64,000 bases of DNA from Chloroflexota bacterium (GTDB taxonomy: Bacteria > Chloroflexota > Dehalococcoidia > JACQUA01). Both the position numbers and the translations under genes were made by a program. Positions 23,783 through 47,465 of the stretch are shown here, piece after piece; the stretch's first letter is position 1, and each line of letters opens with the position of its first letter. The notes beneath the pieces were generated by a model. It searched no databases. It had not been told where the DNA came from and saw nothing but the letters and a program-made list of their open reading frames with translations. The stretch is from the NCBI GenBank assembly GCA_016210565.1, contig JACQUA010000367.1, positions 1 to 64,000 of the forward strand. Reading direction: 5' to 3'.

Positions 23783-26665
23783 ATGATTAAACCAGACAGA
23801 TTGGGAACCATTTTGTTGCTGCTTGTCCTCCTGCACCTGCCCGTCGTTCGGGTGGCAAACGCACAGACTTCTCCTCCCGTGGGGGTCACGGAGGTAGAGA
23901 TTTCTAGCTTTGTCTTCAAACCGGCAAGTGTGACCGTCGCCGCCGGGACAACCATTACCTGGAACAATGCGGACCCGGTGGCGCATACCGTAACGGCCAC
24001 CGACCACTCGTTTGACAGCGGGTCCATCAAGAACGGGCAAAGCTATAGCCGAACTTTTGCTCAACCGGGAACCTTTGACTATTTTTGCGAACCCCACCCC
24101 AACATGAAAGGTGTGGTAATAGTCAAATCGACGGACCCAATCCCCACCACCCCATCTCCCCAGATGACCGTGCTCCCAGCGGCGCCCTTGCCGCCAGCAC
24201 CACCTGAGCCGGTCTCCCCAGCAGAGCATTCCCATATGCCGGAAGAAATTGGCCCCCTGCCAGCGCCTGGACCTGCGCCGTCGGCAGACCCGTTGCCTTC
24301 GCCCGGGAAGATTCTGTACCCCGATACAGGTAATTCCCTGCGGGCATTGTTTGGGACCATCACGGCTGCAGACACCGACACCGTCAGCATCGAAACGCAG
24401 GATGAGCCCCAGGGGAAAGTAATGGTGCAGTTGTACTCCCGAACCGATGTTGTAGTTCCCCAAAGTCTGCGGGGCCCCTCCATCGATCTGAAGACCGGGG
24501 ATCACATTGCTGTCGTCGCAGGGATGTCGGAAGGAAAATATGTTGCTTTACAAATAGCCCCGGTCCCCGGAGAGCCAGTGAGCAAACATCTTCATGGTTT
24601 GGTGGTGGGTTCGAGAGACTCCAGCGTCGTCCTGCTGGACAGAAATGGAAAAGTGTATCTGTTGCAATTGTCGGAGGACCTTGTTGTCCCCCGGCTGGGC
24701 CAACTCATCATGGCCTCCGTGGAAGAGGACCAAGCTCTGGAGCCTGCCTTTTCCGGAAGGATCCTGACCTATGGGGTCTCAGAAAACATTCTTGAAAGGC
24801 TGGAAAAACAGGTAAGGAGGATTGCGGGCAGCAAGCCAAAAGACGAAAAAGAGGAGAGAATAAGGGCCGAGGACCTGGAAAAGCTGGAAGGACTCTTGTC
24901 CGGGCAGGCTGATGCGAATCTCCAATTGCTGGAGCGCGCACTGGAAAAAGCTCCTTTTGATGCACGGTCTATCTACCTCCCGGTGCTTAACCGGGCGATG
25001 GAAAAGAAATGGGATGTCGCCTATCAAATAGAAAGAAGAAAAGATAGGGACCTGTTTGTTCAAATGGTCCAGAGCCTTCTTCTTAGCCGTGACAGCGGTA
25101 CGCAACAGGCATCGTCGCCAATCTCGTCGCGGGTCCCCACGCCCCAGCCCAATCCGTTGCCAGATACTTCCCCTGTCCTGGCCATTCCGGACGCCAGGGT
25201 TGACATCTCCGGCTACCAGTTCAACCCGAAAACCATCACGATCACTCCCGGTACAACGGTCGTCTGGACTAACCTCGACCCCGCTTCTCACACCGTTACA
25301 TCGAGAGACGGTTCCTTCGATAGCGGGATGATGAGGACTGGCCAGACCTTTCGACGGACCTTTACTCAGGTCGGATATTTTGATTACTACTGCGACCCCC
25401 ATCCTGCCATGATGGGTACCATAATAGTCCAGTATCCCAATGCCCCCCTGTCTGCCCAGGTCCCGATCCCGGCGCCCACGCCCACTCCGATTCCGTTTCC
25501 CCCGGCCAATAGCGCGAATAGCGTGAATATTTCAGGCTTCCAGTTCAGTCCACAGGCCCTTACCGTCGCCGCCGGGACGACGGTCGTGTGGACCAACCTC
25601 GACGCTGTTTCCCATACGGTAACCGCCAACGACGGTTCGTTTGACAGCGGGTTGATCGGCAACGGGCAAAGCTACAGCAGGACCTTCACCCAGGCCGGGT
25701 CTTTCACTTACCGTTGCGGCCCTCATCCGACCATGACCGGCGTTGTCATGGTGCAGGGTTGGACCGCCACTCCCACTCCGCCTCCGCCTCCAACACCTAG
25801 TCCCACGCCCACGCCACCCGCTCAAAATCCCGTGACACCTCCCGGTGACGTTATCGTAAACATTTCCGGGTTCGCGTTTAACCCGCCAACCGTAACTATC
25901 GCCGCAGGAGCCACCGTTGCGTGGCAGAACCTGGACCCCGCATCTCATTCGGTAACAGCCAACGACCGGTCGTTTGACAGCGGGTTAATCGGGCCCGGGC
26001 AGACCTTCACCAGGGTCTTTACACAGGTCGGAACTTTCACCTACCATTGTGAACCACATCCCACCATGACCGGGAAGGTAATAGTCCAGGCAGGCGCACC
26101 AAGTCCCACGCCCCCGGCCCCAACCCCCACTCCCGCGCCATCTCCTTCGCAGCCAACTATAGCCATAGGAAGTAATGCTTATGCTCCCTTTGTCCTGACT
26201 GTTACCGTGGGAACGCCGGTTACCTGGAAGAACTTCGACCAGGCGCGGCATACCGTAACCGCCTTCAACAAGAGCTTCGATAGCGACGACCTCAAAGAGG
26301 GGCAAAGCTATACCAGGACTTTTGCCGAGGCCGGGACCTTTGACTACTATTGCAAGCGCCACAAAGGCATGATCGGCAGATTGGTAGTTCAGGCCGCTGC
26401 GCCCGCTTCTTCGATATCCGCCGGTGCAGGTCCAGCGCTGGGGGCATCTCCTTTCTCCGCCTCCCCGGCCCCATCACCCCAAACTTCTCCTGCATTAGCT
26501 GCTTCTCCGACGATTCTTCCTGCCACGCCATCGCCGGGTCCCGACCCCCGGAGTACAGCGGCATCTTCATCCACACCAGCGCCCACTCCCCGTCCCACCT
26601 CGTCGCCTTCCCCAACTTCCAAACATCGACGAGGAGAAAAGTCCGGAAAGTCCAGAGGTTCGTAG
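23783..26665 (+). CDS. Secreted protein with five cupredoxin (plastocyanin-like) domains
   Basis: 960 residues, ATG after GGAG. A signal peptide (1-27, ending VANA) is followed by a cupredoxin domain at about 36-115, then a beta-rich region (180-290) and a helical region (320-430). Four more cupredoxin domains follow at about 472-550, 579-657, 689-769 and 791-870, joined by Pro/Thr linkers. Every domain keeps the type-1 copper ligands His ... Cys-x2-His-x3/4-Met, as in AHTVTA...YFCEPHPNM and RHTVTA...YYCKRHKGM. The tail is Pro/Ser-rich with a basic end. Such domains carry electrons or store copper outside the cell. No redox enzyme is adjacent. Confidence 0.88.
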   Translation: MIKPDRLGTILLLLVLLHLPVVRVANAQTSPPVGVTEVEISSFVFKPASVTVAAGTTITWNNADPVAHTVTATDHSFDSGSIKNGQSYSRTFAQPGTFDYFCEPHPNMKGVVIVKSTDPIPTTPSPQMTVLPAAPLPPAPPEPVSPAEHSHMPEEIGPLPAPGPAPSADPLPSPGKILYPDTGNSLRALFGTITAADTDTVSIETQDEPQGKVMVQLYSRTDVVVPQSLRGPSIDLKTGDHIAVVAGMSEGKYVALQIAPVPGEPVSKHLHGLVVGSRDSSVVLLDRNGKVYLLQLSEDLVVPRLGQLIMASVEEDQALEPAFSGRILTYGVSENILERLEKQVRRIAGSKPKDEKEERIRAEDLEKLEGLLSGQADANLQLLERALEKAPFDARSIYLPVLNRAMEKKWDVAYQIERRKDRDLFVQMVQSLLLSRDSGTQQASSPISSRVPTPQPNPLPDTSPVLAIPDARVDISGYQFNPKTITITPGTTVVWTNLDPASHTVTSRDGSFDSGMMRTGQTFRRTFTQVGYFDYYCDPHPAMMGTIIVQYPNAPLSAQVPIPAPTPTPIPFPPANSANSVNISGFQFSPQALTVAAGTTVVWTNLDAVSHTVTANDGSFDSGLIGNGQSYSRTFTQAGSFTYRCGPHPTMTGVVMVQGWTATPTPPPPPTPSPTPTPPAQNPVTPPGDVIVNISGFAFNPPTVTIAAGATVAWQNLDPASHSVTANDRSFDSGLIGPGQTFTRVFTQVGTFTYHCEPHPTMTGKVIVQAGAPSPTPPAPTPTPAPSPSQPTIAIGSNAYAPFVLTVTVGTPVTWKNFDQARHTVTAFNKSFDSDDLKEGQSYTRTFAEAGTFDYYCKRHKGMIGRLVVQAAAPASSISAGAGPALGASPFSASPAPSPQTSPALAASPTILPATPSPGPDPRSTAASSSTPAPTPRPTSSPSPTSKHRRGEKSGKSRGS

Positions 26666-27258: not shown

Positions 27259-28095
27259 TCATGGCAGGTGCCCGGCCCGAACCCCACCCTTGACCGCGTC
27301 CCTATCCGGGGCAATCTCGTCACCCATCGACCTGGCCTTCCCCCGGTCGTCACCGAGGCAGAGACTTATCCTTCCGGCCGCACCAACGACGGCGGCGACG
27401 AAGCGGGTCGCTTCCTCGACGCCAAATCGAGGCAAGGGACCGCCAACACAGATGGCACCGAGGACCTGATGCTCACGGCCGAAAATGGGCGCCGCAACCC
27501 CGACGACGCCCGGCTGACGCTCGCCGACGGTCACAACAAAACCCTGACTCCTGACCTGCGCCAGTTGTTCCCGCAGTCTACCCGCATCAAGAATCTGGCC
27601 CGAGGCCAGGACCTGTGTCCCGGCGCTCCTCAAACTTTCCATAACAGCCCCTGAATCGCTTTCGCCCAGGAAGGCCAGAATAGCCTTACCCGAACCACAC
27701 CACAAAGGGGACCGTTTCCCCATCTCCGGTATCTGGCGCACCTCGTGTTTGCTTTCCACCAGATCGACGAACATTCGTTCCAGCCCAATGCGCAAGCTCA
27801 GGCTTACCGTTTCACCGGTTTCATCCCGGAGTTGGTGCAAATACGGCCGGCTGGCGCTCCTCAGGTCAAGCTGCGACTGGGCGATCAGGCCGATCTCCAT
27901 GACCTTCACACCCAGAACATAACCCCGGGTGGCAACGTCCTGCGCGACCAGTTGTTCATTCTCCAATTGTGAAAGGGTACGGCACACAGTGCCCTTCCTT
28001 GAGCGCATGGCCCTGCTGATCTCGCTCACCCCCGCGGGAACGCCAACCGAGGCCAGGTAATGCAGAATGAGCGTTGCTCGCTTTATTGCGTTCAA
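27259..28095 (-). CDS. IclR-family transcriptional regulator
   Basis: 278 residues. The TTG start (MNAIKRATLILHYL) has GGAG seven bases upstream. The N-terminal winged helix contains GVSEISRAMRSRKGTVCRTL, and the effector-binding domain holds GSGKAILAF and the typical VTVGERQPGVVGVAAPIF. About 30 residues at the C-terminus exceed the usual family length. It lies divergent from the CoA-transferase at 28254, so it probably regulates it. It is a paralogue of the 34525-35301 gene, and their leader and start regions are nearly the same. Confidence 0.88.
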   Translation of the reverse strand: MNAIKRATLILHYLASVGVPAGVSEISRAMRSRKGTVCRTLSQLENEQLVAQDVATRGYVLGVKVMEIGLIAQSQLDLRSASRPYLHQLRDETGETVSLSLRIGLERMFVDLVESKHEVRQIPEMGKRSPLWCGSGKAILAFLGESDSGAVMESLRSAGTQVLASGQILDAGRLREQLAQVRSQGFVVTVGERQPGVVGVAAPIFGREHQVLGAICVGGPLPRFGVEEATRFVAAVVGAAGRISLCLGDDRGKARSMGDEIAPDRDAVKGGVRAGHLP

Positions 28096-34524: not shown

Positions 34525-35301
34525 CTACCGCCGCGCCAGTTCGGGAATGAGGTCGCCCAGATGAAGGCTTATCTTCCGCGCCGCCTCGCCCACCGCAGGC
34601 CCCACCCGTGTGCCCGCTTCCGGGCCGAACCGCGGCAGCGGCCCCCCCACAGCTATGGAGCCGATCACTTTGTGGTCCCGCTCAAAGATCGGCGCTGCCA
34701 CGCCGGCGAAACTCGGCAGCCGCTCCCCGACAGTTACCGCAAAGCCCTGTCTCCGGACTTCGACCAACTCCGCCTTCAGCCTTTCGACGTCCAGGATTTG
34801 CCCGGAGGCCAGGGTCCCTATCCCTGATTTCCGGATGGCGTCGATAATGCCCTCCATCTCGCTCTCCTCCAGGTTGGCCAGAATTACCTTCCCACTGCCA
34901 CCGGCCCACAGGGGAAAACGCCTGCCCAGCTCCGGCACCTGCCTCACCTCGTACGTCCCCGGCGACTGGGCGATGTACATCCGGTCCATGCCGACCCGCA
35001 AAGTCAGCGTTACGGTTTCCCCCGTGGCATTACGAAGCTGCTGCATGTACGGCAGGCTGGCGCTCCTCAAGTCCAGGCGCGATTGCGCCAGCAAACCGAG
35101 CTCCAGGACCTTGATTCCCAGCGTGTACTTGCCCGTTTCGGGGTGCTGCAAGACGAATTCTTCCCGGTCCAGGTCGGAAAGAAGCCGCGACACCGTGCCC
35201 TTGCTCAGGTGAAGGACCTTGCTGATTTCCGTTACCCCCGCCGGCGCTCCTGCCCCCCCCAGGTAGCTCAGGACCGCCGCCGCGCGCTTGACAGTGTTCA
35301 A
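34525..35301 (-). CDS. IclR-family transcriptional regulator
   Basis: 258 residues, the usual family length. The TTG start (MNTVKRAAAVLSYL) has GGAG six bases upstream. Winged helix: GVTEISKVLHLSKGTVSRLL; effector domain: GGSGKVILANLEESEMEG and VTVGERLPSFAGVAAPIFE. It is a paralogue of the 27259-28095 gene. It is convergent with the hydratase and lies divergent from the relic at 35408, so its old target may have been the deleted module there. Confidence 0.88.
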   Translation of the reverse strand: MNTVKRAAAVLSYLGGAGAPAGVTEISKVLHLSKGTVSRLLSDLDREEFVLQHPETGKYTLGIKVLELGLLAQSRLDLRSASLPYMQQLRNATGETVTLTLRVGMDRMYIAQSPGTYEVRQVPELGRRFPLWAGGSGKVILANLEESEMEGIIDAIRKSGIGTLASGQILDVERLKAELVEVRRQGFAVTVGERLPSFAGVAAPIFERDHKVIGSIAVGGPLPRFGPEAGTRVGPAVGEAARKISLHLGDLIPELARR

Positions 35302-37884: not shown

Positions 37885-38040
37885 GTAGTGAGCAGCGAGT
37901 AGTGAGTAGCGGGTAGCCAGTAGCCCCTCCCCACGCGCCCGCCACGCAGGGCAGGCTAGGCGCAAAGGGTTCAGATTAGCCGGATTGTGGGACCTACTCA
38001 CTTCTCACTACTCGCTACTCGCTACTCACTACTTGATTCT
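37885..38040. repeat. R8 inverted repeat (AGTAGTGAGTAGCGAGTAG)
   Basis: A left arm of AGTAGTGAGTAGCGGGTAG units (37886-37920) faces a right arm of CACTACTCGCTACTCGCTAC units (38005-38033). The pair forms a long hairpin in the spacer between the two FAD oxidoreductases. Confidence 0.85.
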
Positions 38041-38064
38041 GAATTCCTTACAAGGGGCAAAGCA

Positions 38065-39699
38065 ATGGAGAAGACCTACGATATCATTATCATCGGCGCC
38101 GGACCAAACGGGCTGGAGGCCGGAGCCTATCTGGCCCGCGCCGGCCTGAAAGTGTTGCTGCTGGAGGCGCGCCACGAAGTCGGCGGCGGCCTGGCCACGG
38201 AAGAAGTCACCCTGGGCGGCTTCATGCACAACACCCACGCCGTCTACATGATGATGGCGGACTATGCGCCGGTCTACCAGGACTTCAAGTTCGAAGAGCA
38301 GTATCTCTGCAAACATATTTACCCGTCCCTACAGTTCGCCATGCCCCTGTCTGACGGCAAGTCCCTCTGCCTCTACTCGGACCTGGAGAAGTCGGTCGCG
38401 TCCATCGCCCGGTTCTCGAAGAAGGACGCCGAGAGCTACCGCGAGCTGTACCACAAGTGCGCCAGGGCGGTGGAGGACTTCATCGCCCCCGCGACCTTCG
38501 CGCCCCCCCTGCCGGCGCTCGACCAGATGGTGAAACTACAAAGCGCCGGAGTGGAATCGGTCAACTGGATGCTCGAAGCCTCGGAGAAGACCCCAAAGGA
38601 GCTCATCGAGGAGCATTTCGAGAACCCCCACGTCCGCGCCCTCATGCTTTACGTGGCCACCCACTGGGGCGTGGACTACGACCAGGCTGGACTGGGCTAC
38701 CTGGTGCTGCTCTATCTCAACCGGGCCACCAACTACCGCCTGGTGCAGGGAGGCTCGCACCGCGCCGCCCAGGCTTTGCACAAGGCCATCCACGAACGGC
38801 AGGGCGTGGTGCTGGACAACGAGAAACCCAGGCGGTTGATCATCGAAGGCGGCAAAGCCACCGGCATCGAGTTGCACGACGGTACCGTCGTCAAAGCCGG
38901 CAAAGCTATCATCAGCACCACCGACCCCAAGGAGACCTTCCTGAACCTGGTGGGGGAGAAGGACCTGGATAAGGATTTCGCCGACAGCGTCAAGGGCTGG
39001 CAGTGGGAGAAACACAGCTTGTTCACCACCTCCCTGGCCCTGGCGGAGGCCCCCAGCTTCACCGCCGCGGCCTCCAACCCCGATTTGAACAAGGCCTTCG
39101 TCTATGTCCTTGGCTACGAGGACCCCGAGACCCTGATGAAAGACTACGACCTGGTGGACAACGGCGAAGTTTCGCCCCAGGCTGCCTTCAACTGCTGCTT
39201 CCCAACCGTACACGACCCCATTCAGGCGCCGAAGGGCCGTCATACCGGTATCATCTCCCGCTTCGCCCCCTACAATCTCAAGGACGGGGGACCGGACAGG
39301 TGGTACAGCATTTCGTACAAAGAGCAGGCGGCCCAGAGCTGCCTGGAAACCCTGCGCCAATATGCCCCGAACATGACGCCGGACAAGGTCCTCTGGAAAT
39401 ACATATGTACCCCGGTCGACCTGCCGAATAAGTTCCTCGACATGGTCCAGGGGTCCTTCAAACAGGGACAATACCACCCGCTGCAAATGGGCTACCTCAG
39501 GCCCAACGAGCAGTGCTCCAACGCCCGCACGCCCATCAAGAACCTTTACGTGGGCGGTTCGTCCAACTATCCGGGCGGCTGTGTCATTTGGGGGGCAGGC
39601 TACCTGGCCGCGAATGCCGTGGCCGACGACCTGGGCATCCAGAAATGGTGGCAGGAGCCGGCGATAGTCACAAAGGCGAAGAAAGCGGGACTGCTGTAG
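38065..39699 (+). CDS. FAD-dependent oxidoreductase, phytoene-desaturase-like, paralogue
   Basis: 544 residues from ATG 38065 with AAGGGG upstream; earlier in-frame codons lie in the R8 repeat. IIIGAGPNGLEAGAYLARAG and LEARHEVGGGLATEE are the FAD-binding segments, and YVGGSSNYPGGCVIWGAG closes the fold. Tandem paralogues of equal length suggest a heteromer or two steps of one oxidation. The substrate is unknown. Confidence 0.85.
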   Translation: MEKTYDIIIIGAGPNGLEAGAYLARAGLKVLLLEARHEVGGGLATEEVTLGGFMHNTHAVYMMMADYAPVYQDFKFEEQYLCKHIYPSLQFAMPLSDGKSLCLYSDLEKSVASIARFSKKDAESYRELYHKCARAVEDFIAPATFAPPLPALDQMVKLQSAGVESVNWMLEASEKTPKELIEEHFENPHVRALMLYVATHWGVDYDQAGLGYLVLLYLNRATNYRLVQGGSHRAAQALHKAIHERQGVVLDNEKPRRLIIEGGKATGIELHDGTVVKAGKAIISTTDPKETFLNLVGEKDLDKDFADSVKGWQWEKHSLFTTSLALAEAPSFTAAASNPDLNKAFVYVLGYEDPETLMKDYDLVDNGEVSPQAAFNCCFPTVHDPIQAPKGRHTGIISRFAPYNLKDGGPDRWYSISYKEQAAQSCLETLRQYAPNMTPDKVLWKYICTPVDLPNKFLDMVQGSFKQGQYHPLQMGYLRPNEQCSNARTPIKNLYVGGSSNYPGGCVIWGAGYLAANAVADDLGIQKWWQEPAIVTKAKKAGLL

Positions 39700-40028
39700 T
39701 CCGGGCAGTCTGAGCTTCGGCCAGCAAGAAGATGCGCCGGCAGTCATTGCCGGTCCCGATTACGGCAGGACGAAGCAATCCCGTAGGGGCGAACCCGTGT
39801 GTTCGCCCGCCGGCGGGGAGACCCGTGTGTCTGCCCCTACGGGGAGGGGTCCGCCGTGCCGCGACGGTGGTCGGAGCCCGTTCGTTTTCATCCTCGATGG
39901 ACCTTTCCCAACGTTTGCAGTGGCCCAATGAAACTATGTTGGGCGTGTTGCTGTTGACCCGCAATACAGGTTTCTTCCCGGATTTCAATAGCCATTCGAA
40001 TATTTCCATTAATTTCACCAAAATCCTC
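39700..40028. other. Spacer with R2-like and GTAGGGGC palindromes
   Basis: AGTCATTGCCGGTC ... GACGAAGCAATCCC (39744-39784) is an R2 variant. A GTAGGGGCGAACCCGTG ... TGCCCCTACGG palindrome follows to about 39845, then CATCCTCGATGG. The AT-richer 39980-40028 leads into a promoter. Confidence 0.6.
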
Positions 40029-40057
40029 TTGACTTTTCGCTGACCCCGTCTTAAAAT
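40029..40057 (+). promoter_or_regulatory. Sigma-70-type promoter of module copy A
   Basis: TTGACT (40029-40034), 17 bases, TAAAAT (40052-40057), then TTGCAACACTGTTTCACAAC. It is clearly homologous to the promoter at 43062-43090 and presumably now drives the MaoC gene directly. Confidence 0.65.
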
Positions 40058-40100
40058 TTTGCAACACTGTTTCACAACATGATGGCAGCAGAAGACAACG

Positions 40101-40288
40101 TGGTACCAGCCCAAGAACGACCTCAACCATGTCCTCACCGAGCGGTTCAGCCGCGAAAAGGCGGAGGACCGGATGGAGATAGATGCTTCACGAAGAAGAC
40201 ATCCCACCGGTCAATACCGTCGATAAGGCCGTGGCCGACCCCCAGGCGCTCCATACCAGGATGATCGTGGACCCGGAGGACGGCCCGG
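40101..40288 (+). pseudogene. Deletion scar of a CaiB/BaiF CoA-transferase (module copy A)
   Basis: From GGTACCAGCCCAAGAACGAC the sequence matches the 43146 gene from about 43966 through GACGGCCC at about 44153. Before 40101 is the module leader, and after 40288 comes the MaoC leader (GATTCCGCTGCTTACGGAGG). Two deletions therefore removed about the first 270 codons and the last 70 codons plus the spacer. The remnant is also frame-shifted (GAGATAGATGCTTCACGAAG versus GAGATACTTCACCAAG). Confidence 0.75.
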
Positions 40289-40312
40289 ATTCCGCTGCTT
40301 ACGGAGGGGGTT

Positions 40313-41446
40313 ATGACACAGGCTGACGTCTTCAGCGAAGAAAATCTGGCTATTGTCAGGTCCCGGATAGGCTCGCCCGTCCCCCGGGGACAGCAGTTCA
40401 ACGAAATAGCCACCAGGGACGCCATCCGGCACTTCGCCCAGGGTTACGGCGACGTCAATCCTCTCTGGCGCGATGATGCCTATGCCGGCAAGACCCGGTA
40501 CGGGTGTATCGTGGCGCCGCCCCTGTTTCTTTATAGTTGCGACCCTCTGGGGATCGGTCCGGCCGGGATGGGATTGCCCGGCGCCCACGGTCTCTGGGCG
40601 AGTGATGAGTGGGAATGGTTTCGGCCTGTCCGCTTAAACGATCGCATAGTTGCAGAAGAAAAGCTGGCGGACCTGAGAGAGGTAACGGGCAGGTTTGCTG
40701 AAAGGCTGTTCAATCAAATAGGCGAAACCATCTATCGCAGCAGCGATGGAGACATCATAGCCAGAAGATTGATGACTGACAGAAGATTTCTCCGCTATCC
40801 GGAAACGGAAAAAGGTGAGAAGAGAGACAAATACCAGGACATTTCGAGGCACAAGTACAGCAGGGAAGACCTCGAAGGAATTTTCGCTGACTATGACAAA
40901 GAGGAAATCAGGGGAGCGAACCCGCGGTGCTGGGAAGATGTTCGGGTCGGGGACGAGCTAGCTCATGTCGTCAAGGGTCCGTTGGTTCTTACCGACCTTA
41001 TTGCCTGGTACATCGGAGTCGGCCCTGCCCCTTTCATCCGGGCCCACGGCATCCGGCTGGCTTATGACCGGAAACATCCGGCCGGGGCATTGCCAGACGG
41101 CCTTGGAATCCCCGACACGCCGCAACGCGCTCATTGGGATGAAGAGTTTGCTAAGAGCATTGGCATGCCCGGCGCCTTCGATCAGGGCAACCAGAGAATC
41201 ACCTGGGTCTCTCAGGTGATGACCAATTGGATCGGTGATGACGGGTTCCTTAAGAAGCTCACCGTATATTTGCGGCGACCCAATGTTCTCGGAGATACCT
41301 GCCGGTGCCGCGGTAAGGTGGTCCGGAAATATGTCGAAAACGAGGAACACCTTGTCGATTGCGAGCTCTGGGCTGACAACCAAAGGGGGGAAAAGTCGGC
41401 CACCGGGGTGGCGACCGCCGTTCTTCCTTCCCGGGGCAAAGTTTGA
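40313..41446 (+). CDS. MaoC-like dehydratase / FAS1-type hydratase, module copy A
   Basis: 377 residues. The ATG follows GGAGGG. The N-terminal hot-dog domain has DAIRHFAQGYGDVNPLWRDD and YGCIVAPPLFLYSC, the R-hydratase signature of MaoC/FAS1-like proteins. A second, more diverged hot-dog-like half follows (residues 190-377), so one chain may form the two-fold unit. It would hydrate a 2-enoyl-CoA. Its close paralogue is at 44592. It overlaps no gene and is followed after 51 bases by the acyl-CoA hydrolase. Confidence 0.85.
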   Translation: MTQADVFSEENLAIVRSRIGSPVPRGQQFNEIATRDAIRHFAQGYGDVNPLWRDDAYAGKTRYGCIVAPPLFLYSCDPLGIGPAGMGLPGAHGLWASDEWEWFRPVRLNDRIVAEEKLADLREVTGRFAERLFNQIGETIYRSSDGDIIARRLMTDRRFLRYPETEKGEKRDKYQDISRHKYSREDLEGIFADYDKEEIRGANPRCWEDVRVGDELAHVVKGPLVLTDLIAWYIGVGPAPFIRAHGIRLAYDRKHPAGALPDGLGIPDTPQRAHWDEEFAKSIGMPGAFDQGNQRITWVSQVMTNWIGDDGFLKKLTVYLRRPNVLGDTCRCRGKVVRKYVENEEHLVDCELWADNQRGEKSATGVATAVLPSRGKV

Positions 41447-41497
41447 AGATTCCAGCCACCCGTAGCTAGTACCTGGAACCGTTGGTGGAGCAGCTCG

Positions 41498-42844
41498 TTG
41501 CCTTTTCCTGAGGAATACGAAAGGAAGCTGATTACCGCTGAACAGGCGGCCGGGCTGGTAAAACCAGGCGACCTGGTGGTTTTCGCCTTCGGCAGGCAGG
41601 CAGTCACGGTTGGACGCGCAATTGCTGCCAGAAGGCAGGAATTGAAAGGAACTGATATCTTCCTGACGGCGCCGATATACGACTTCGGTTGGTACGATCC
41701 TGGCTGGGAAGAAATCTTCAGTATCGCCATTTTTCTCCCAACCCCGATATGTCAGGACGCCGTTGACAAAGGAAGGCTGGACATAAATCCGGGCGTGCTA
41801 TTTCCTGGAAATCACCTCGCAGAATTGAGGGACCCGGATATCTTGCTCGTGGAGGTCTCCCCACCCGACGAAAAGGGCTATTGCAGTTTCGGTCAGTCGC
41901 TCTGGAACAAGAGAAGCCAGGTCAGGAGGGCGAAGACGGTGATCGGCGAGGTAAACCGAAACGCGATCCGGACCTACGGCGATAACTATGTGCACGTTTC
42001 GGAAATAGACCATTTCGTGGAGCACATACCTACAGGCAGACAGCCGGGCGACATCCTGCTGGCAGGCAAACCCAGGAGAGAACCCGAACCCTATTTGTCG
42101 GACATAGCCGGACATGTAGCTCGTCTTATCAAGGATGGGGACACCCTGCAAATAGGCATTGGCAGGGCCACCGAGGCGCTGGCCACCCTGGGGATACTGA
42201 AAGGCAGGCAAGACATAGGGTATCACGCCGAGGCTACGACGCCCGGCATCATCTCTCTGGTAAAGGAGGGTGTAATCAATGGGAAACGCAAGACCCTGAA
42301 TCCCGGGAAACTGGTAGCTACCTCCATTGGAGGCGGGAGCAAAGATGAAATGGACTGGGTCGATAACAACCCGGGGTTCTGGTTGATGGACGCGGACTAC
42401 GTAGAAGATATCAGGATAATATCAGCTCACGACAACATGGTGGCGATCAACAGTGCTCTGTCAGTAGACCTCACCGGGCAGATCAACGCCGAAACCCTGG
42501 GCAATCGCATCATCTCCGGCCCCGGGGGACAAATACCTTTCGTCATTGGCGCCCTTCTCTCCAGGGGCGGCCGCGCCGTCACCGTCCTCCCGTCCACCGC
42601 TTCCGGGGGCGCCGCCTCCCGGATCGTCGCCCAATTCCCCACCGGCTCGGCGGTTACCATCCAGCGTTGCTGCGCCGATATCGTGGCCACCGAGTATGGA
42701 GTGGCCCATCTCCGGGGCAAAACCATCCGGCAACGCGCCGAGGAGCTTATCGCCATCGCTCATCCGGATTTCCGGCATGAGTTGAGGGCACACGCCGTCC
42801 ACATCAGACCTGTGTATCCACCCGGAGTAAGCCGTGGTTCCTGA
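41498..42844 (+). CDS. Acetyl-CoA hydrolase/CoA-transferase family protein (family I type), module copy A
   Basis: 448 residues with a TTG start and GGAG seven bases upstream. Family I enzymes pass CoA through a glutamyl thioester. The catalytic Glu245 lies in DIGYHAEATTPGIISL, and DGDTLQIGIGRATEAL and SGPGGQIPFVIGA are family blocks. Members include acetate, 4-hydroxybutyrate and succinate CoA-transferases. It might recycle CoA from the activated substrate. It closely resembles the 45818 protein, though the C-terminal 15 residues differ completely. Confidence 0.87.
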   Translation: MPFPEEYERKLITAEQAAGLVKPGDLVVFAFGRQAVTVGRAIAARRQELKGTDIFLTAPIYDFGWYDPGWEEIFSIAIFLPTPICQDAVDKGRLDINPGVLFPGNHLAELRDPDILLVEVSPPDEKGYCSFGQSLWNKRSQVRRAKTVIGEVNRNAIRTYGDNYVHVSEIDHFVEHIPTGRQPGDILLAGKPRREPEPYLSDIAGHVARLIKDGDTLQIGIGRATEALATLGILKGRQDIGYHAEATTPGIISLVKEGVINGKRKTLNPGKLVATSIGGGSKDEMDWVDNNPGFWLMDADYVEDIRIISAHDNMVAINSALSVDLTGQINAETLGNRIISGPGGQIPFVIGALLSRGGRAVTVLPSTASGGAASRIVAQFPTGSAVTIQRCCADIVATEYGVAHLRGKTIRQRAEELIAIAHPDFRHELRAHAVHIRPVYPPGVSRGS

Positions 42845-42869
42845 TTTCTGGCGGGCCTGATTCTGCTAC

Positions 42870-43012
42870 GAAGATGTCATTGCGAGCGAAGCGCGGCAAT
42901 CTCCCAGCCTGTTCAGCCAACTGGGGGATTGCTTCGTCGCTGCGCTCCTCGCAAAGAAAATCCGTTTTCATTCTTGATGGTCCCGACTCGTCGGGATGGG
43001 TGATTGAATCTG
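42870..43012. repeat. R2 palindromic repeat spacer
   Basis: TCATTGCGAGCGAAGCGCGG ... GGGGATTGCTTCGTCGCTGC, then CATTCTTGATGG and GACTCGTCGGGATGG. It fills most of the 300-base gap between copy A and the promoter of copy B. Confidence 0.85.
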
Positions 43013-43061
43013 GAGTGGTATTCTCCCCAAAAAGATTATCGCAAAACACCTGGCGCACCTC

Positions 43062-43090
43062 TTGACTTATCGCTGACGCCATTGTAATAT
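43062..43090 (+). promoter_or_regulatory. Sigma-70-type promoter of module copy B
   Basis: TTGACT (43062-43067), 17 bases, TAATAT (43085-43090), then TCTGCAACATTGTTTCATAAC. The GCAAC element just after the -10 is shared by the four promoter-like sites and may be an operator. Confidence 0.7.
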
Positions 43091-43145
43091 TCTGCAACAT
43101 TGTTTCATAACCTGACGGCGGTAGAAGACAGCAAGGAAGGATTTC

Positions 43146-44360
43146 ATGGCAGGGCCTTTATCAGGAGTCCGCATCCTGGATTTCTCCCACACCACGGCGG
43201 GCGCCTATGGCACCATGCTGCTGGCCGACCTCGGGGCTGAGGTCATCAAGATCGAAGCCGGCGAGGGCGGGTCGGACAGGATCGTCCCCGGACCGAAGTT
43301 CCAGGGCAACAGCTATGTCTACCTCGCCCTGAACCGCAATAAGAAAAGCATCCTCCTGGACTTGCGCACAGAGACCGGCAAAGAGGCCTTCCACGACCTC
43401 GCCAGGGTCTCGGACGTGGTCTGGGACAATTTCCGGAGCGGCGTGATGAAGCGGCTCGGCGCAGACTATGCCACCCTGAAGAGCATCAATCCCCGGATCG
43501 TCGCCTGCTCCATCACCGGCTTCGGTCCCTCGGGCCCATACTGCGACTGGCCGTCGTACGACATCATCGCCTGCGCCCTCAGCGGCATGATGAGCATTAC
43601 CGGAGAGCCGGGCAGACCCCCCGTCCGGCCGGGCATCACCATCGGCGACCTGGCCCCCTCCATGTTCGCCGCGCTGGGCGTCTGCGCCGCCCTGGCATCG
43701 CGGTCGCAGACCGGCGCCGGGCAGGAGGTCCAGATTTCCCAGATCGATAGTATGATATCCCTGATGGGAATCCACATCGCCTATTACTTCTGCGGAGGCG
43801 GAGTCCCCGGTCCCGAGGGGTCGGGGCATCTCACCATCAACCCCTACGGCGCCTATCCCACCAGGGATGGCTACCTGGCGTTGGGACCCTGCTGGCCACG
43901 CATCACCAGGGTGGTGGACGCCGAATGGATGCAGGAAGACCCCCGGTTCAAAGACCGGGAGGTCCGGTACCAGCACAAGAGCGACCTCGACCGTGTCCTC
44001 GCCGAGCGGTTCAGCCGCGAAAAGGCGGAGGACTGGCTCGAGATACTTCACCAAGAAGACATCCCCTCCGCGCCGGTCAATACCGTCGATAAGGCCGTGG
44101 CCGATCCCCAGGTGCTCCACAACAGGATGATCGTGGACCTCAGGGACGGCCCAGGAAATGTGACAAGGATAGCCGGCAACCCCATCAAGACGAAAAGCGC
44201 GGAGGAACAGGAGTTCACCCTTCCGCCGGGGCTGGGACAGCACACCGAACAAATACTTTCGGAGCTTCTGCAATACCCTCCCGACAAGATCGCCAGGTTG
44301 AAAAGAGATTACCACGGCCATGCCGCCGAATTGCAGGCGCACAAGCGTAAGTCGCTATGA
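43146..44360 (+). CDS. Family III (CaiB/BaiF) CoA-transferase, module copy B
   Basis: 404 residues. The ATG follows AAGGAAGGA. GVRILDFSHTTAGAYGTML, AEVIKIEAGEGGSDRIV, ITGFGPSGPYCDW and LGQHTEQIL are the family blocks. The nucleophile position in VQISQIDSM is Asp201, so the enzyme should be active. It begins the intact module with the MaoC-like and hydrolase genes downstream. A terminator-like hairpin separates it from the MaoC gene. Its start relic and C-terminal scar persist at 35494 and 40101. Confidence 0.9.
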   Translation: MAGPLSGVRILDFSHTTAGAYGTMLLADLGAEVIKIEAGEGGSDRIVPGPKFQGNSYVYLALNRNKKSILLDLRTETGKEAFHDLARVSDVVWDNFRSGVMKRLGADYATLKSINPRIVACSITGFGPSGPYCDWPSYDIIACALSGMMSITGEPGRPPVRPGITIGDLAPSMFAALGVCAALASRSQTGAGQEVQISQIDSMISLMGIHIAYYFCGGGVPGPEGSGHLTINPYGAYPTRDGYLALGPCWPRITRVVDAEWMQEDPRFKDREVRYQHKSDLDRVLAERFSREKAEDWLEILHQEDIPSAPVNTVDKAVADPQVLHNRMIVDLRDGPGNVTRIAGNPIKTKSAEEQEFTLPPGLGQHTEQILSELLQYPPDKIARLKRDYHGHAAELQAHKRKSL

Positions 44361-44375
44361 TGGAGGAAAGGGATG

Positions 44376-44505
44376 AAGCCACGAATTGACACGAATAAAC
44401 ACAAACAGAGAGCATGAGTCGGGGGCAGTTATCGCTTTACTGAGTCCAGACTGCAACAGGGAAGACAATTCGTGTGCATTCGTGTGCATTCGTGGTTTCA
44501 GTTAC
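44376..44505. repeat. R10 inverted repeat (CCACGAATT / AATTCGTG ends)
   Basis: GCCACGAATTGACACGAATA at 44375-44394 is opposed by ATTCGTGTGCATTCGTGTGC and ATTCGTGGTTTC near 44468-44500, giving a large imperfect palindrome. Seen only once in this window. Confidence 0.6.
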
Positions 44506-44524
44506 TAACCCCTGTCAACCTGGG

Positions 44525-44563
44525 ATTCGGGGTCCGGGACGACCCCGAATACGGCCCTTTTTT
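44525..44563 (+). terminator. Terminator- or attenuator-like hairpin before the copy B MaoC gene
   Basis: ATTCGGGGTC (44525-44534), loop CGGGAC, and GACCCCGAAT (44541-44550) form a perfect 10-bp stem. Seven bases later come six T residues. It would reduce read-through from the CoA-transferase into the MaoC-like gene. The offset of the T run lowers the confidence. Confidence 0.45.
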
Positions 44564-44591
44564 GTGATTCCGCCGCTTACGGAGGGCGACC

Positions 44592-45755
44592 ATGACACAG
44601 GCCATCGACGTTTTCAGCGACGAGAATCTGTCAATCATCAGGTCCCGAATAGGTTCGCCCGTGCCCCGGGGGCAGCAGTTCAACGAAGTAGCCACCAGGG
44701 ACGCCATCCGGCACTTCGCTCAGGGTTACGGCGACGTCAATCCTCTCTGGTGCGATGATTCCTACGCCGGCAGGACCAGATACGGTTGTATCGTAGCGCC
44801 GCCCCTGTTTCTTTACAGTTGCGAGTGGTCCGGACAGGGCGCCGCCGCCATGGGACTGCGGGGGGCGCATTCCCTGTGGACCGGGGACGAGTGGGAATGG
44901 TTCCACCCGGTGCGGGTGAATGACCGGATCACGTTTGAAGAGAAGCTGCTGGACCTGAGGGAAGTGCAGGGAAAATTCGCCGCGCGCCTCTTTGAGCAGA
45001 TAGCCGAAAAGACATTCAAGAACCAGTCCGGCCAGCTTGTGGCCAGGTGCCTGATGACCTGCCGCCGGTTCACCAGGTACCCGGAAAGCGAAAAGGGCGA
45101 GAAGAGGGACAAGTACCAGGACGCCCGGAAAAAGTACGACAGAGAGGAGCTTCAAGCAATCTTCGCCGACTACGACAAAGAGGAAATCCGGGGCGGCAGT
45201 CCCCGCTACTGGGAGGATGTGCGCGAGGGCGACGCCCTGGCGCACGTGGTCAAAGGCCCGCTGACCGTGACCGACGTAATTGCCTGGTACATCGGCATGG
45301 GGCCCCAGCCGTTCATCCGCGCCCACGGCATCCGGCTGGCTTACGACCGGCGGCACCCCGCGGCGGCCATACCCAACGCTCTGGGCATCCCCGACGTCCC
45401 CATGAGGGTTCACTGGGAAGATGACCTGGCGCGGACCATTGGGTTCCCCGCCGCCTACGACATGGGCAACCAGAGGATTACCTGGGTCTCGCAGGTGATG
45501 ACCAACTGGACCGGCGACGATGGTTTTCTGAAGAAATTCAAGATACAACTGCGGCGTCCCAATCTCATCGGCGATACCTGCTGGTGCCGGGGCAAGGTGA
45601 TCCGGAAGTATGTCGCAAACGGCGAGCACCTTGTTGACTGCGAGCTGTGGGCGGACAACCAGCGGGGGGAGCGTTCCGCCATCGCCACCGCCACCGCCAG
45701 CCTCCCTTCGCGGCAAGCCGACGACCCACAGTACCACAGGCGTCCCCGCCTGTGA
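44592..45755 (+). CDS. MaoC-like dehydratase, module copy B
   Basis: 387 residues. The ATG follows GGAGGG. It is the close paralogue of the 40313 protein: DAIRHFAQGYGDVNPLWCDD, YGCIVAPPLFLYSC and EEIRGGSPRYWEDVREGD are shared or nearly so. The two copies align up to LPSR; copy A then ends in GKV, while this one continues DDPQYHRRPRL, and those codons are an R4 repeat whose TGA serves as the stop. It overlaps no annotated gene; the hydrolase start at 45818 follows 62 bases later. Confidence 0.87.
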   Translation: MTQAIDVFSDENLSIIRSRIGSPVPRGQQFNEVATRDAIRHFAQGYGDVNPLWCDDSYAGRTRYGCIVAPPLFLYSCEWSGQGAAAMGLRGAHSLWTGDEWEWFHPVRVNDRITFEEKLLDLREVQGKFAARLFEQIAEKTFKNQSGQLVARCLMTCRRFTRYPESEKGEKRDKYQDARKKYDREELQAIFADYDKEEIRGGSPRYWEDVREGDALAHVVKGPLTVTDVIAWYIGMGPQPFIRAHGIRLAYDRRHPAAAIPNALGIPDVPMRVHWEDDLARTIGFPAAYDMGNQRITWVSQVMTNWTGDDGFLKKFKIQLRRPNLIGDTCWCRGKVIRKYVANGEHLVDCELWADNQRGERSAIATATASLPSRQADDPQYHRRPRL

Positions 45756-45757
45756 GA
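45725..45757. repeat. R4 repeat inside the end of the MaoC-like gene
   Basis: AGTACCACAGGCG...CGCCTGTGAGAG, the reverse form of the R4 unit. Its first part is translated as the tail of the MaoC-like protein and its TGA ends the frame. Confidence 0.75.
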
Positions 45758-45817
45758 GCGGGATTATGGAGCATTGATGGGTTTCACACAAACACCGTTC
45801 ACGTCCGGGTCTGGCAA

Positions 45818-47188
45818 ATGACATCGGTCCAGGACGAATACCAGAAAAAGCTGATTACCGCTGAGCAGGCAGCCGCCCTGGTCAAGCCGGGCGACCTGGT
45901 GAGCTTCTCCTTTGGCAGACAGGCCGTAGCCGTTGGCCGCGCCCTAGCTGTCAGGAAAGAAGAACTTAAGGGCCTCCGGGTCCGGTTGAGCGCGCCGGTC
46001 TATGACTTCGGCTGGTACTCGCCCGGCTGGGAGGAATACTTCTCCGTATCCGTTTTCCTGCCGACGCCGGTCTGCCAGGAAGCCGTAGACGCCGGAAGGA
46101 TCGACCTGAATCCGGGCGTGCTTTTTCCGGGCAACCCGATGGCCGAGCCCGAGCCGCCGGACGTGCTCGTGGTGGAATTGTCGCCGCCGGACGAAAAGGG
46201 GTTCTGCAGCTTCGGCCAGTCGCTGTGGAACAAGAAGCAAGAGGTCGGCCGCGCCAGGCTGGTAATCGCTGAGGTAAATGGAAATCTCATCAGGACGTAT
46301 GGCGAAAACTTTGTTCACATGTCCGAGATAGACTATTTCGTCGCCCACGTCCCTACCGGAAGAAAGCCGGGCGACGCTTCTTTGACCGGCAAGACCCCGA
46401 AGCTCTCAGAACCGTACCTGAAACACATTGCCTCCCTGGTCTCCGGGCTGATCAGAGACGGGGACACCATCCAGATAGGCATAGGGCGGGCCACCGAGCC
46501 CCTCGTCTCACTGGGAATGCTCGGCGGCAAGCGTGACATCGGCTATCATTCCGAGGCCACCACCCCCGGCGTCATCTCCCTGGTCCGCCAGGGCGTGATC
46601 AACGGGAAGCGAAAGACCCTGAACCCAGACAAGGTGGTGATCACCTCCGTTGGGGGCAGCACCAGGGAGGAGATGGACTGGGTCAACAACAATCCCTGCT
46701 TCTGGCTGATGCCCGCCAGCTACATCGAAGACATACGTATCATCGCTTCCCATGACAACATGGTGGCTATTAACAGCGCCCTTTCGATGGACCTGACCGG
46801 CCAGATTAACGCCGAGACCGTGGACGGGCGGTACATCAGCGGGCCGGGCGGCCAGATACCTTTCGTCATCGGCGCCCTGCTCTCCCGGGGAGGCCGGGGC
46901 ATCACCGTCATGCCATCCACCGCCAGGGACGGGGCCGCCTCACGCATCGTGCCGGAGTTCCCGGCCGGGGCCTCGGTGAGCATACAACGGTGCTGTGCGG
47001 ATATCGTGGTGACCGAATTCGGGGTCGCCAATCTCAGGGGAAAGACGCTACGCCAGCGGGCCGAGGAGCTCATCGCCATCGCCCATCCCGATTTCCGGGG
47101 GGAGCTAAAGAAACACGCCAACTCCAAATCCAAAATCCGAATGTCGAAATCCGAAACAAGTTCAAATTACCAAAACCCGAATGAATAA
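45818..47188 (+). CDS. Acetyl-CoA hydrolase/CoA-transferase family protein, module copy B
   Basis: 456 residues from ATG 45818; the frame is open earlier but those codons overlap the MaoC gene and an R4 repeat. The catalytic Glu246 is in DIGYHSEATTPGVISL, and GDTIQIGIGRATEPL and SGPGGQIPFVIGA match copy A. After DFRGELKKHAN the sequence reads SKSKIRMSKSETSS and ends NPNE. That tail is translated from an R1b repeat and is absent from copy A. No clear ribosome-binding site was seen. Confidence 0.86.
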   Translation: MTSVQDEYQKKLITAEQAAALVKPGDLVSFSFGRQAVAVGRALAVRKEELKGLRVRLSAPVYDFGWYSPGWEEYFSVSVFLPTPVCQEAVDAGRIDLNPGVLFPGNPMAEPEPPDVLVVELSPPDEKGFCSFGQSLWNKKQEVGRARLVIAEVNGNLIRTYGENFVHMSEIDYFVAHVPTGRKPGDASLTGKTPKLSEPYLKHIASLVSGLIRDGDTIQIGIGRATEPLVSLGMLGGKRDIGYHSEATTPGVISLVRQGVINGKRKTLNPDKVVITSVGGSTREEMDWVNNNPCFWLMPASYIEDIRIIASHDNMVAINSALSMDLTGQINAETVDGRYISGPGGQIPFVIGALLSRGGRGITVMPSTARDGAASRIVPEFPAGASVSIQRCCADIVVTEFGVANLRGKTLRQRAEELIAIAHPDFRGELKKHANSKSKIRMSKSETSSNYQNPNE

Positions 47189-47465
47189 GACGTTTCAGGC
47201 GTTGGAGCATTTGGATTTCGGTATTGCTCCGAAAATGTCACCCTGAGCCGGAGCCCTGAGCGAAGCGAAGGGGCAGTCGAAGGGTCTTTCGTCCGGCGCC
47301 CCACCTCGAAAGAACTTGTCCTGAGCGGAGCGAAGGATTCTTCGACTACGCTCGCTTCGCTCAGAATGACATTTTCATCGTTCATTGTCCCGACTCGTCG
47401 GGATGGCCGATTGTTTAGTATTTCGGATTTAGTGCTTCGGATTTGTGATTTCGTTGCGGCTTGTC
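47118..47465. repeat. R1b + R3 + R1b repeat spacer
   Basis: AATCCAAAATCCGAATGTCG (47127-47146) begins inside the hydrolase gene. R3 arms (GTCACCCTGAGCCGG ... CGCTCAGAATGACA) run 47238-47372, and a further TTCGGATTTAGTGCTTCGG unit runs to about 47450. The 310-base gap holds no gene. Confidence 0.8.

What the first reader, a model, noticed from the sequence alone, without database searches (positions are those of the whole stretch)
40029..47188. Duplicated CoA-transferase/MaoC/hydrolase module with a double deletion in one copy
Copy B (43062-47188) has promoter, CoA-transferase, MaoC and hydrolase. Copy A (40029-42844) has the same promoter and leader fused to a 188-bp, frame-shifted C-terminal scar of the CoA-transferase (40101-40288), then MaoC and hydrolase. 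The breakpoints (near GAAGACAACG/TGGTACC and GACGGCCC/GGATTCC) can be read directly. Copy A keeps expression of the last two genes without its own CoA-transferase, which may rely on copy B.
Basis: seen in the sequence. Interest (0 to 1): 0.7.

Follow-up and report, generated by a model that had tools for sequence, protein, structure and literature searches.

The report
Mosaic duplicated CoA-transferase operon with relic
Two neighbouring copies of an acyl-CoA gene cluster in an uncultured Dehalococcoidia genome turn out to be old duplicates, one of which had its front end (promoter, a dead gene fragment and the first 76 codons of the next gene) overwritten much later by the other; this is a clean but ordinary case of gene shuffling between duplicates.

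Summary
Module B (43058-47188) is promoter, type III CoA-transferase, double-hotdog MaoC protein and Cat1-type CoA-transferase. Module A (40025-42844) has the same promoter and leader, a dead 185-bp internal piece of the type III gene, then MaoC and Cat1-type genes. The promoter motif occurs nowhere else in the 6.5-Mb assembly.

The explanation is not one duplication followed by two deletions. The dead fragment is less diverged (11% substitutions, no codon-position bias) than the intact genes (about 50% at third positions). Low divergence continues into MaoC and ends at codon 76 (A 40541 / B 44823): differing synonymous codons 14/67 before, 111/201 after. Among 204 control pairs the N/C ratio is never below 0.68; A/B is 0.38. 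So A is a mosaic: an old paralogous MaoC-Cat1 pair whose 5' end was later replaced by the B-type front end, its type III gene being truncated then or afterwards.

The "hydrolase" is itself a CoA-transferase homologue with its catalytic glutamate position kept in both copies, so A need not rely on B. Part of the second "deletion" is repeat sequence present in B. An ordinary evolutionary mechanism; moderate-to-low interest.

The parts
40025..40097 (+). Module A promoter (TTGACT-17-TAAAAT at 40029-40057) and leader, homologous to 43058-43130; homology starts abruptly a few bp before the -35 element
   Evidence: 82% over 73 bp; promoter scan; no homology upstream; motif only twice in genome
40102..40286 (+). 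Relic of type III CoA-transferase gene (B residues ~274-335), frameshifted; lacks the catalytic Asp region
   Evidence: 85% to 43966-44152; substitutions 6/61, 8/62, 7/62 at codon positions 1, 2, 3; only other copy in genome is module B
40079..40264 (+). 61-codon out-of-frame ORF across leader and scar, probably a by-product of the fusion
40313..41446 (+). MaoC/FAS1_DH-like double-hotdog protein A; codons 1-76 recently shared with B, the remainder anciently diverged
40541..40541 (+). Best-fitting change-point (recombination boundary) in MaoC A, = 44823 in B
   Evidence: third-position change-point, 16/76 vs 164/300, none of 5000 permutations as strong
41498..42844 (+). Cat1-type (4-hydroxybutyrate/butyryl-CoA:acetate) CoA-transferase homologue A, TTG start, Glu245 in the HxE position
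43058..43130 (+). Module B promoter (TTGACT-17-TAATAT at 43062-43090) and leader
43146..44360 (+). Type III (CaiB/BaiF) CoA-transferase, intact, Asp168 in catalytic motif
   Evidence: PF02515 E=1.6e-117; PDB matches
44373..44558 (.). Dispersed-repeat sequence between the type III gene and MaoC in B, absent from A
   Evidence: 43 genome matches to 44361-44591, itself included
44592..45755 (+). MaoC/FAS1_DH-like double-hotdog protein B
45818..47188 (+). Cat1-type CoA-transferase homologue B, Glu246; C-terminal tail read from a dispersed repeat

Best explanation
A and B are old tandem paralogues of a MaoC-Cat1 gene pair. Much later, the front end of the B-type module (promoter, leader, at least part of the type III CoA-transferase gene, and the first ~76 codons of MaoC) was copied onto the front of A by recombination ending inside the conserved 5' part of MaoC (gene conversion or a homology-assisted segmental duplication). 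The type III gene in A was cut down to a dead internal 185-bp piece during or after that event, while promoter, ribosome-binding site, MaoC and Cat1-type genes stayed intact. A therefore most likely still makes a hydratase-like protein and a CoA-transferase from its own promoter. Shown: homology map, discordant divergence, change-point, intact reading frames under purifying selection, unique promoter pair. Inferred: direction B to A, recombination mechanism, expression and enzymatic function.
For: Scar 11% substituted with no codon-position bias versus 48-52% at third positions in MaoC and Cat1-type genes. MaoC codons 1-76 dS 0.38 versus saturated dS (2.7, and 1.6 in the third gene) after it. 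Change-point at 40541/44823: third-position differences 16/76 vs 164/300, no permutation of 5000 as strong; identical-residue codons 14/67 vs 111/201, P=1e-6. In 204 pairs of relatives the same 76 codons show no such deficit (ratio median 1.05, minimum 0.68; A/B 0.38). A and B are sisters in both trees with equal branch lengths (0.17 vs 0.15; 0.23 vs 0.21), so A is not decaying; dN/dS about 0.13-0.15. The MaoC-Cat1 pair without this type III gene is frequent in relatives.
Against: Only one genome carries the A/B pair, so the direction cannot be read from a tree. Scar (K 0.12), leader (0.20) and MaoC 5' (dS 0.38) differ somewhat, so it may be more than one event. No repeat or long identity marks the left end of the tract. 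The 204 control pairs share sequences and are not independent.
Confidence: 0.75

Rival explanations
1. One reading: the whole three-gene module was duplicated once; copy A then lost most of its type III gene by two deletions.
For: Collinear order and shared promoter.
Against: A dead fragment is not expected to be less diverged, and evenly so over codon positions, than the functional genes duplicated with it (P=0.017 for the scar's third-position share given the MaoC pattern); abrupt change inside MaoC.
Confidence: 0.1
2. The transfer went the other way: A once had a complete front end and donated it to B, then lost its type III gene.
For: Divergence alone is symmetric.
Against: Needs a complete type III gene in A first and a later loss; only B has it intact, and the closest type III relatives were not seen next to this pair.
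Confidence: 0.1
3. Assembly chimaera of two strains or copies in a metagenome bin.
For: The assembly is a fragmented metagenome-type bin (419 contigs, 6.4% contamination).
Against: The longest exact A/B match is 32 bp and the match next to the change-point is 20 bp, short for a false join; A and B differ by more than 10% in every segment, and the scar has its own indels, which a false join would not create.
Confidence: 0.05

Closest known systems
Gene conversion between bacterial paralogues
   Same: Tract of low divergence with sharp edges inside otherwise old duplicates; reported for bacterial paralogues (e.g. PMC4530459, PMC12046097; titles and abstracts seen)
   Different: Here the tract also carries a promoter and a dead fragment of a neighbouring gene, so it re-promotes the recipient operon; donor direction not proven
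CaiB/BaiF paralogue expansion in SAR202 and related Chloroflexota
   Same: Dozens of type III CoA-transferase matches in one genome, as described for SAR202 (PMC5395668)
   Different: That work concerns ancient paralogues; this is a recent partial copy and a relic
4-hydroxybutyrate / butyryl-CoA:acetate CoA-transferases (AbfT/Cat1 family; PDB 3eh7, 3gk7)
   Same: Third gene of both modules belongs to the domain family; copy A matches 3eh7 over its length with the HxE glutamate position kept, and B has the same motif
   Different: Far below NCBIfam cut-off for butyryl-CoA:acetate CoA-transferase (237 of 675 bits); substrate unknown

Membership tests
Type III CoA-transferase (CaiB/BaiF), B gene 43146-44360 | Full-length PF02515 domain | tested here: met
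   E=1.6e-117, profile 1-366/366
Type III CoA-transferase (CaiB/BaiF), B gene 43146-44360 | Catalytic aspartate | tested here: met
   Asp168 in GITIGDLAPSMFA, aligned with GVAMTDLATGLYA of 9br7; that this Asp is catalytic is established knowledge
Type III CoA-transferase (CaiB/BaiF), A relic 40102-40286 | Open reading frame with N-terminal CoA domain and catalytic Asp | tested here: not met
   Only residues ~274-335, frameshifted with a stop
Cat1/4-hydroxybutyrate CoA-transferase family, third genes | PF13336 and PF02550 domains | tested here: met
   Both above gathering score in A and B
Cat1/4-hydroxybutyrate CoA-transferase family, third genes | Catalytic glutamate | tested here: met
   HAE (A, Glu245) aligns with HTE of 3eh7; B has HSE (Glu246) at the same place
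Butyryl-CoA:acetate CoA-transferase (TIGR03948 equivalog) | Score above curated cut-off 674.8 bits | tested here: not met
   230.5 and 237.2 bits
R-specific (MaoC) enoyl-CoA hydratase | GDxNPxH active-site motif in an active hotdog domain | tested here: not met
   Both copies read GDVNPLW in the first hotdog; the motif itself is from general knowledge; activity cannot be assumed
Gene conversion tract | Significantly lower synonymous divergence in a contiguous segment, not explained by general constraint | tested here: met
Gene conversion tract | Non-reciprocal transfer with known donor | not testable with these tools
   No close relative held

The most novel reading that the evidence does not exclude
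The tract was selected because it gave the older MaoC-Cat1 pair the promoter of the B module, putting both paralogous pairs under one shared control while leaving only one type III CoA-transferase to serve both; the relic and its 61-codon ORF serve as a leader.
Probability: 0.12. Interest if true: 0.45.

Novelty: new member of a known kind. Interest (0 to 1): 0.3.

Why it matters
It shows how a promoter and part of an operon can be pasted onto an older paralogue in the paralogue-rich genomes of uncultured Dehalococcoidia, leaving a datable relic. It also warns that a gene relic next to a duplicated pair need not date from the duplication. The mechanism is well known, so the interest is mainly as a clear example.

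Tried and rejected
Looking for the intact triad elsewhere: single-protein scan of genome contigs found nothing; an alignment scan gave 43 relatives of the third gene, none with a close relative of this type III gene upstream; two scans of about 393 genomes of the class likewise. Looking for further copies of the leader or scar in the genome: none. Testing whether 5' MaoC is simply conserved in the family: it is not. Looking for homology upstream of the promoters: none. A literature search for Dehalococcoidia with these gene terms gave nothing.

Full report
Observation. The window lies in contig C318 (91.5 kb) of a 6.53-Mb, 419-contig assembly estimated 94% complete with 6.4% contamination; its relatives of the same class are recorded as Dehalococcoidia. 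Module B consists of a sigma-70-like promoter (43062-43090), a type III CoA-transferase (43146-44360), a double-hotdog MaoC/FAS1_DH protein (44592-45755) and a protein of the Cat1/4-hydroxybutyrate CoA-transferase family (45818-47188). Module A has the same promoter and leader (40025-40097), a fragment of the type III gene (40102-40286), and intact homologues of the last two genes (40313-41446, 41498-42844). Between A and B the pieces are 82%, 85%, 74% and 72% identical in that order. An 18-base core of the promoter, with two mismatches allowed, occurs only at these two places in the genome, and the scar has no third copy.

The fragment is internal (residues about 274-335 of 404) and not C-terminal; it lacks the catalytic aspartate region. 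The third gene is not a plain hydrolase: copy A matches 4-hydroxybutyrate CoA-transferases of known structure, and both copies keep the HxE glutamate position, though both are far below the cut-off for a true butyryl-CoA:acetate CoA-transferase. Hence A has a CoA-transferase of its own. The stretch of B missing from A on the right side of the scar includes about 205 bp of intergenic DNA, most of which matches dispersed repeats of this genome, so part of that gap is probably an insertion in B.

History. If the whole module had been duplicated at once, a dead fragment should be at least as diverged as the working genes. It is the opposite. The scar differs at 21 of 185 aligned positions, spread evenly over codon positions (6/61, 8/62, 7/62), whereas MaoC and the third gene differ at 48% and 52% of third positions. 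The low divergence does not stop at the scar: it runs through the ribosome-binding site and the first 76 codons of MaoC (dN 0.04, dS 0.38) and then jumps to saturation (dN 0.22, dS 2.7). The change-point in third positions is at A 40541 / B 44823 (16/76 versus 164/300; none of 5000 permutations as strong), and it holds for codons of identical residues (14/67 versus 111/201, P=1e-6). In 204 pairs of MaoC relatives of 55-93% identity, the same 76 codons show no such deficit (N/C ratio median 1.05, minimum 0.68; A/B 0.38). These pairs overlap and are not independent, but none approaches the A/B value. The young tract therefore spans 40025 to about 40541. Its left edge lies within a few bases of the -35 element, and upstream of it there is no homology.

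Relatives. A and B are sisters in trees of both proteins, with equal branch lengths, so the duplication is specific to this lineage as sampled and A's genes are not decaying; dN/dS is about 0.13-0.15. A MaoC gene next to the Cat1-type gene is common in Dehalococcoidia and found in bins of Desulfobacteraceae and other former Deltaproteobacteria, but none of the loci seen has a close relative of this type III gene with them. The simplest history is an old MaoC-Cat1 duplication, addition of promoter and type III gene to B, and a later copy of B's front end onto A, in which the type III gene was cut down at once or soon after. The even spread of changes in the scar over codon positions (P=0.017 against the MaoC pattern) suggests that it was not coding for most of the time since. 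Direction and exact mechanism are inferred.

Function. Neighbouring genes encode a TRAP transporter (DctP, DctM), an acyl-CoA dehydrogenase, further type III CoA-transferases, an enoyl-CoA hydratase and regulators, so the region probably serves uptake and CoA-dependent breakdown of organic acids. Many CaiB/BaiF paralogues are known from related SAR202 bacteria (PMC5395668). A's operon would be transcribed from its copied promoter with a leader of about 250 nt carrying the relic and a 61-codon ORF. Nothing shows that the relic does anything. Both MaoC proteins have W instead of H in the GDxNPxH position of the first hotdog domain, so hydratase activity should not be assumed.

Limits. No reads, no sister genome, no expression data. 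An assembly artefact is unlikely because the longest exact match between the copies is 32 bp and the one at the change-point 20 bp, but it is not excluded.

Noticed in passing
47119-47188: The last ~22 codons of Cat1-type gene B are read from a dispersed repeat (AATCCAAAATCCGAATGTCGAAATCCG...), giving a tail that does not align with A or with the relatives matched by tblastn.
   Followed up: partly
45715-45770: The 3' end of MaoC B (QYHRRPRL) and its stop codon lie in a short repeat (CACAGGCGTCCCCGCCTGTG) present at 40 or more places in the genome.
   Followed up: partly
42864-43010, 39781-39842, 44373-44558, 47235-47289: Several different dispersed intergenic repeat families surround the modules; the first three have tens of matches each in the genome, the last has further copies in the window.
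   Followed up: partly
40313-40541 and 44592-44823: Both MaoC proteins have GDVNPLW instead of the usual hydratase GDxNPxH motif.
   Followed up: no
37987-39699 and L138:4291-5412: A CrtO-like FAD oxidoreductase lies next to a Cat1-type CoA-transferase gene in another Dehalococcoidia genome too (55% identity), so this neighbourhood may be conserved.
   Followed up: no
27259-28095 and 34525-35301: Two related stretches (64% DNA identity) that look like IclR-type regulator paralogues on the same strand; only the second was checked against Pfam.
   Followed up: no
23783-26665: 960-aa ORF with internal repeats (several 65-74% identical DNA segments).
   Followed up: no
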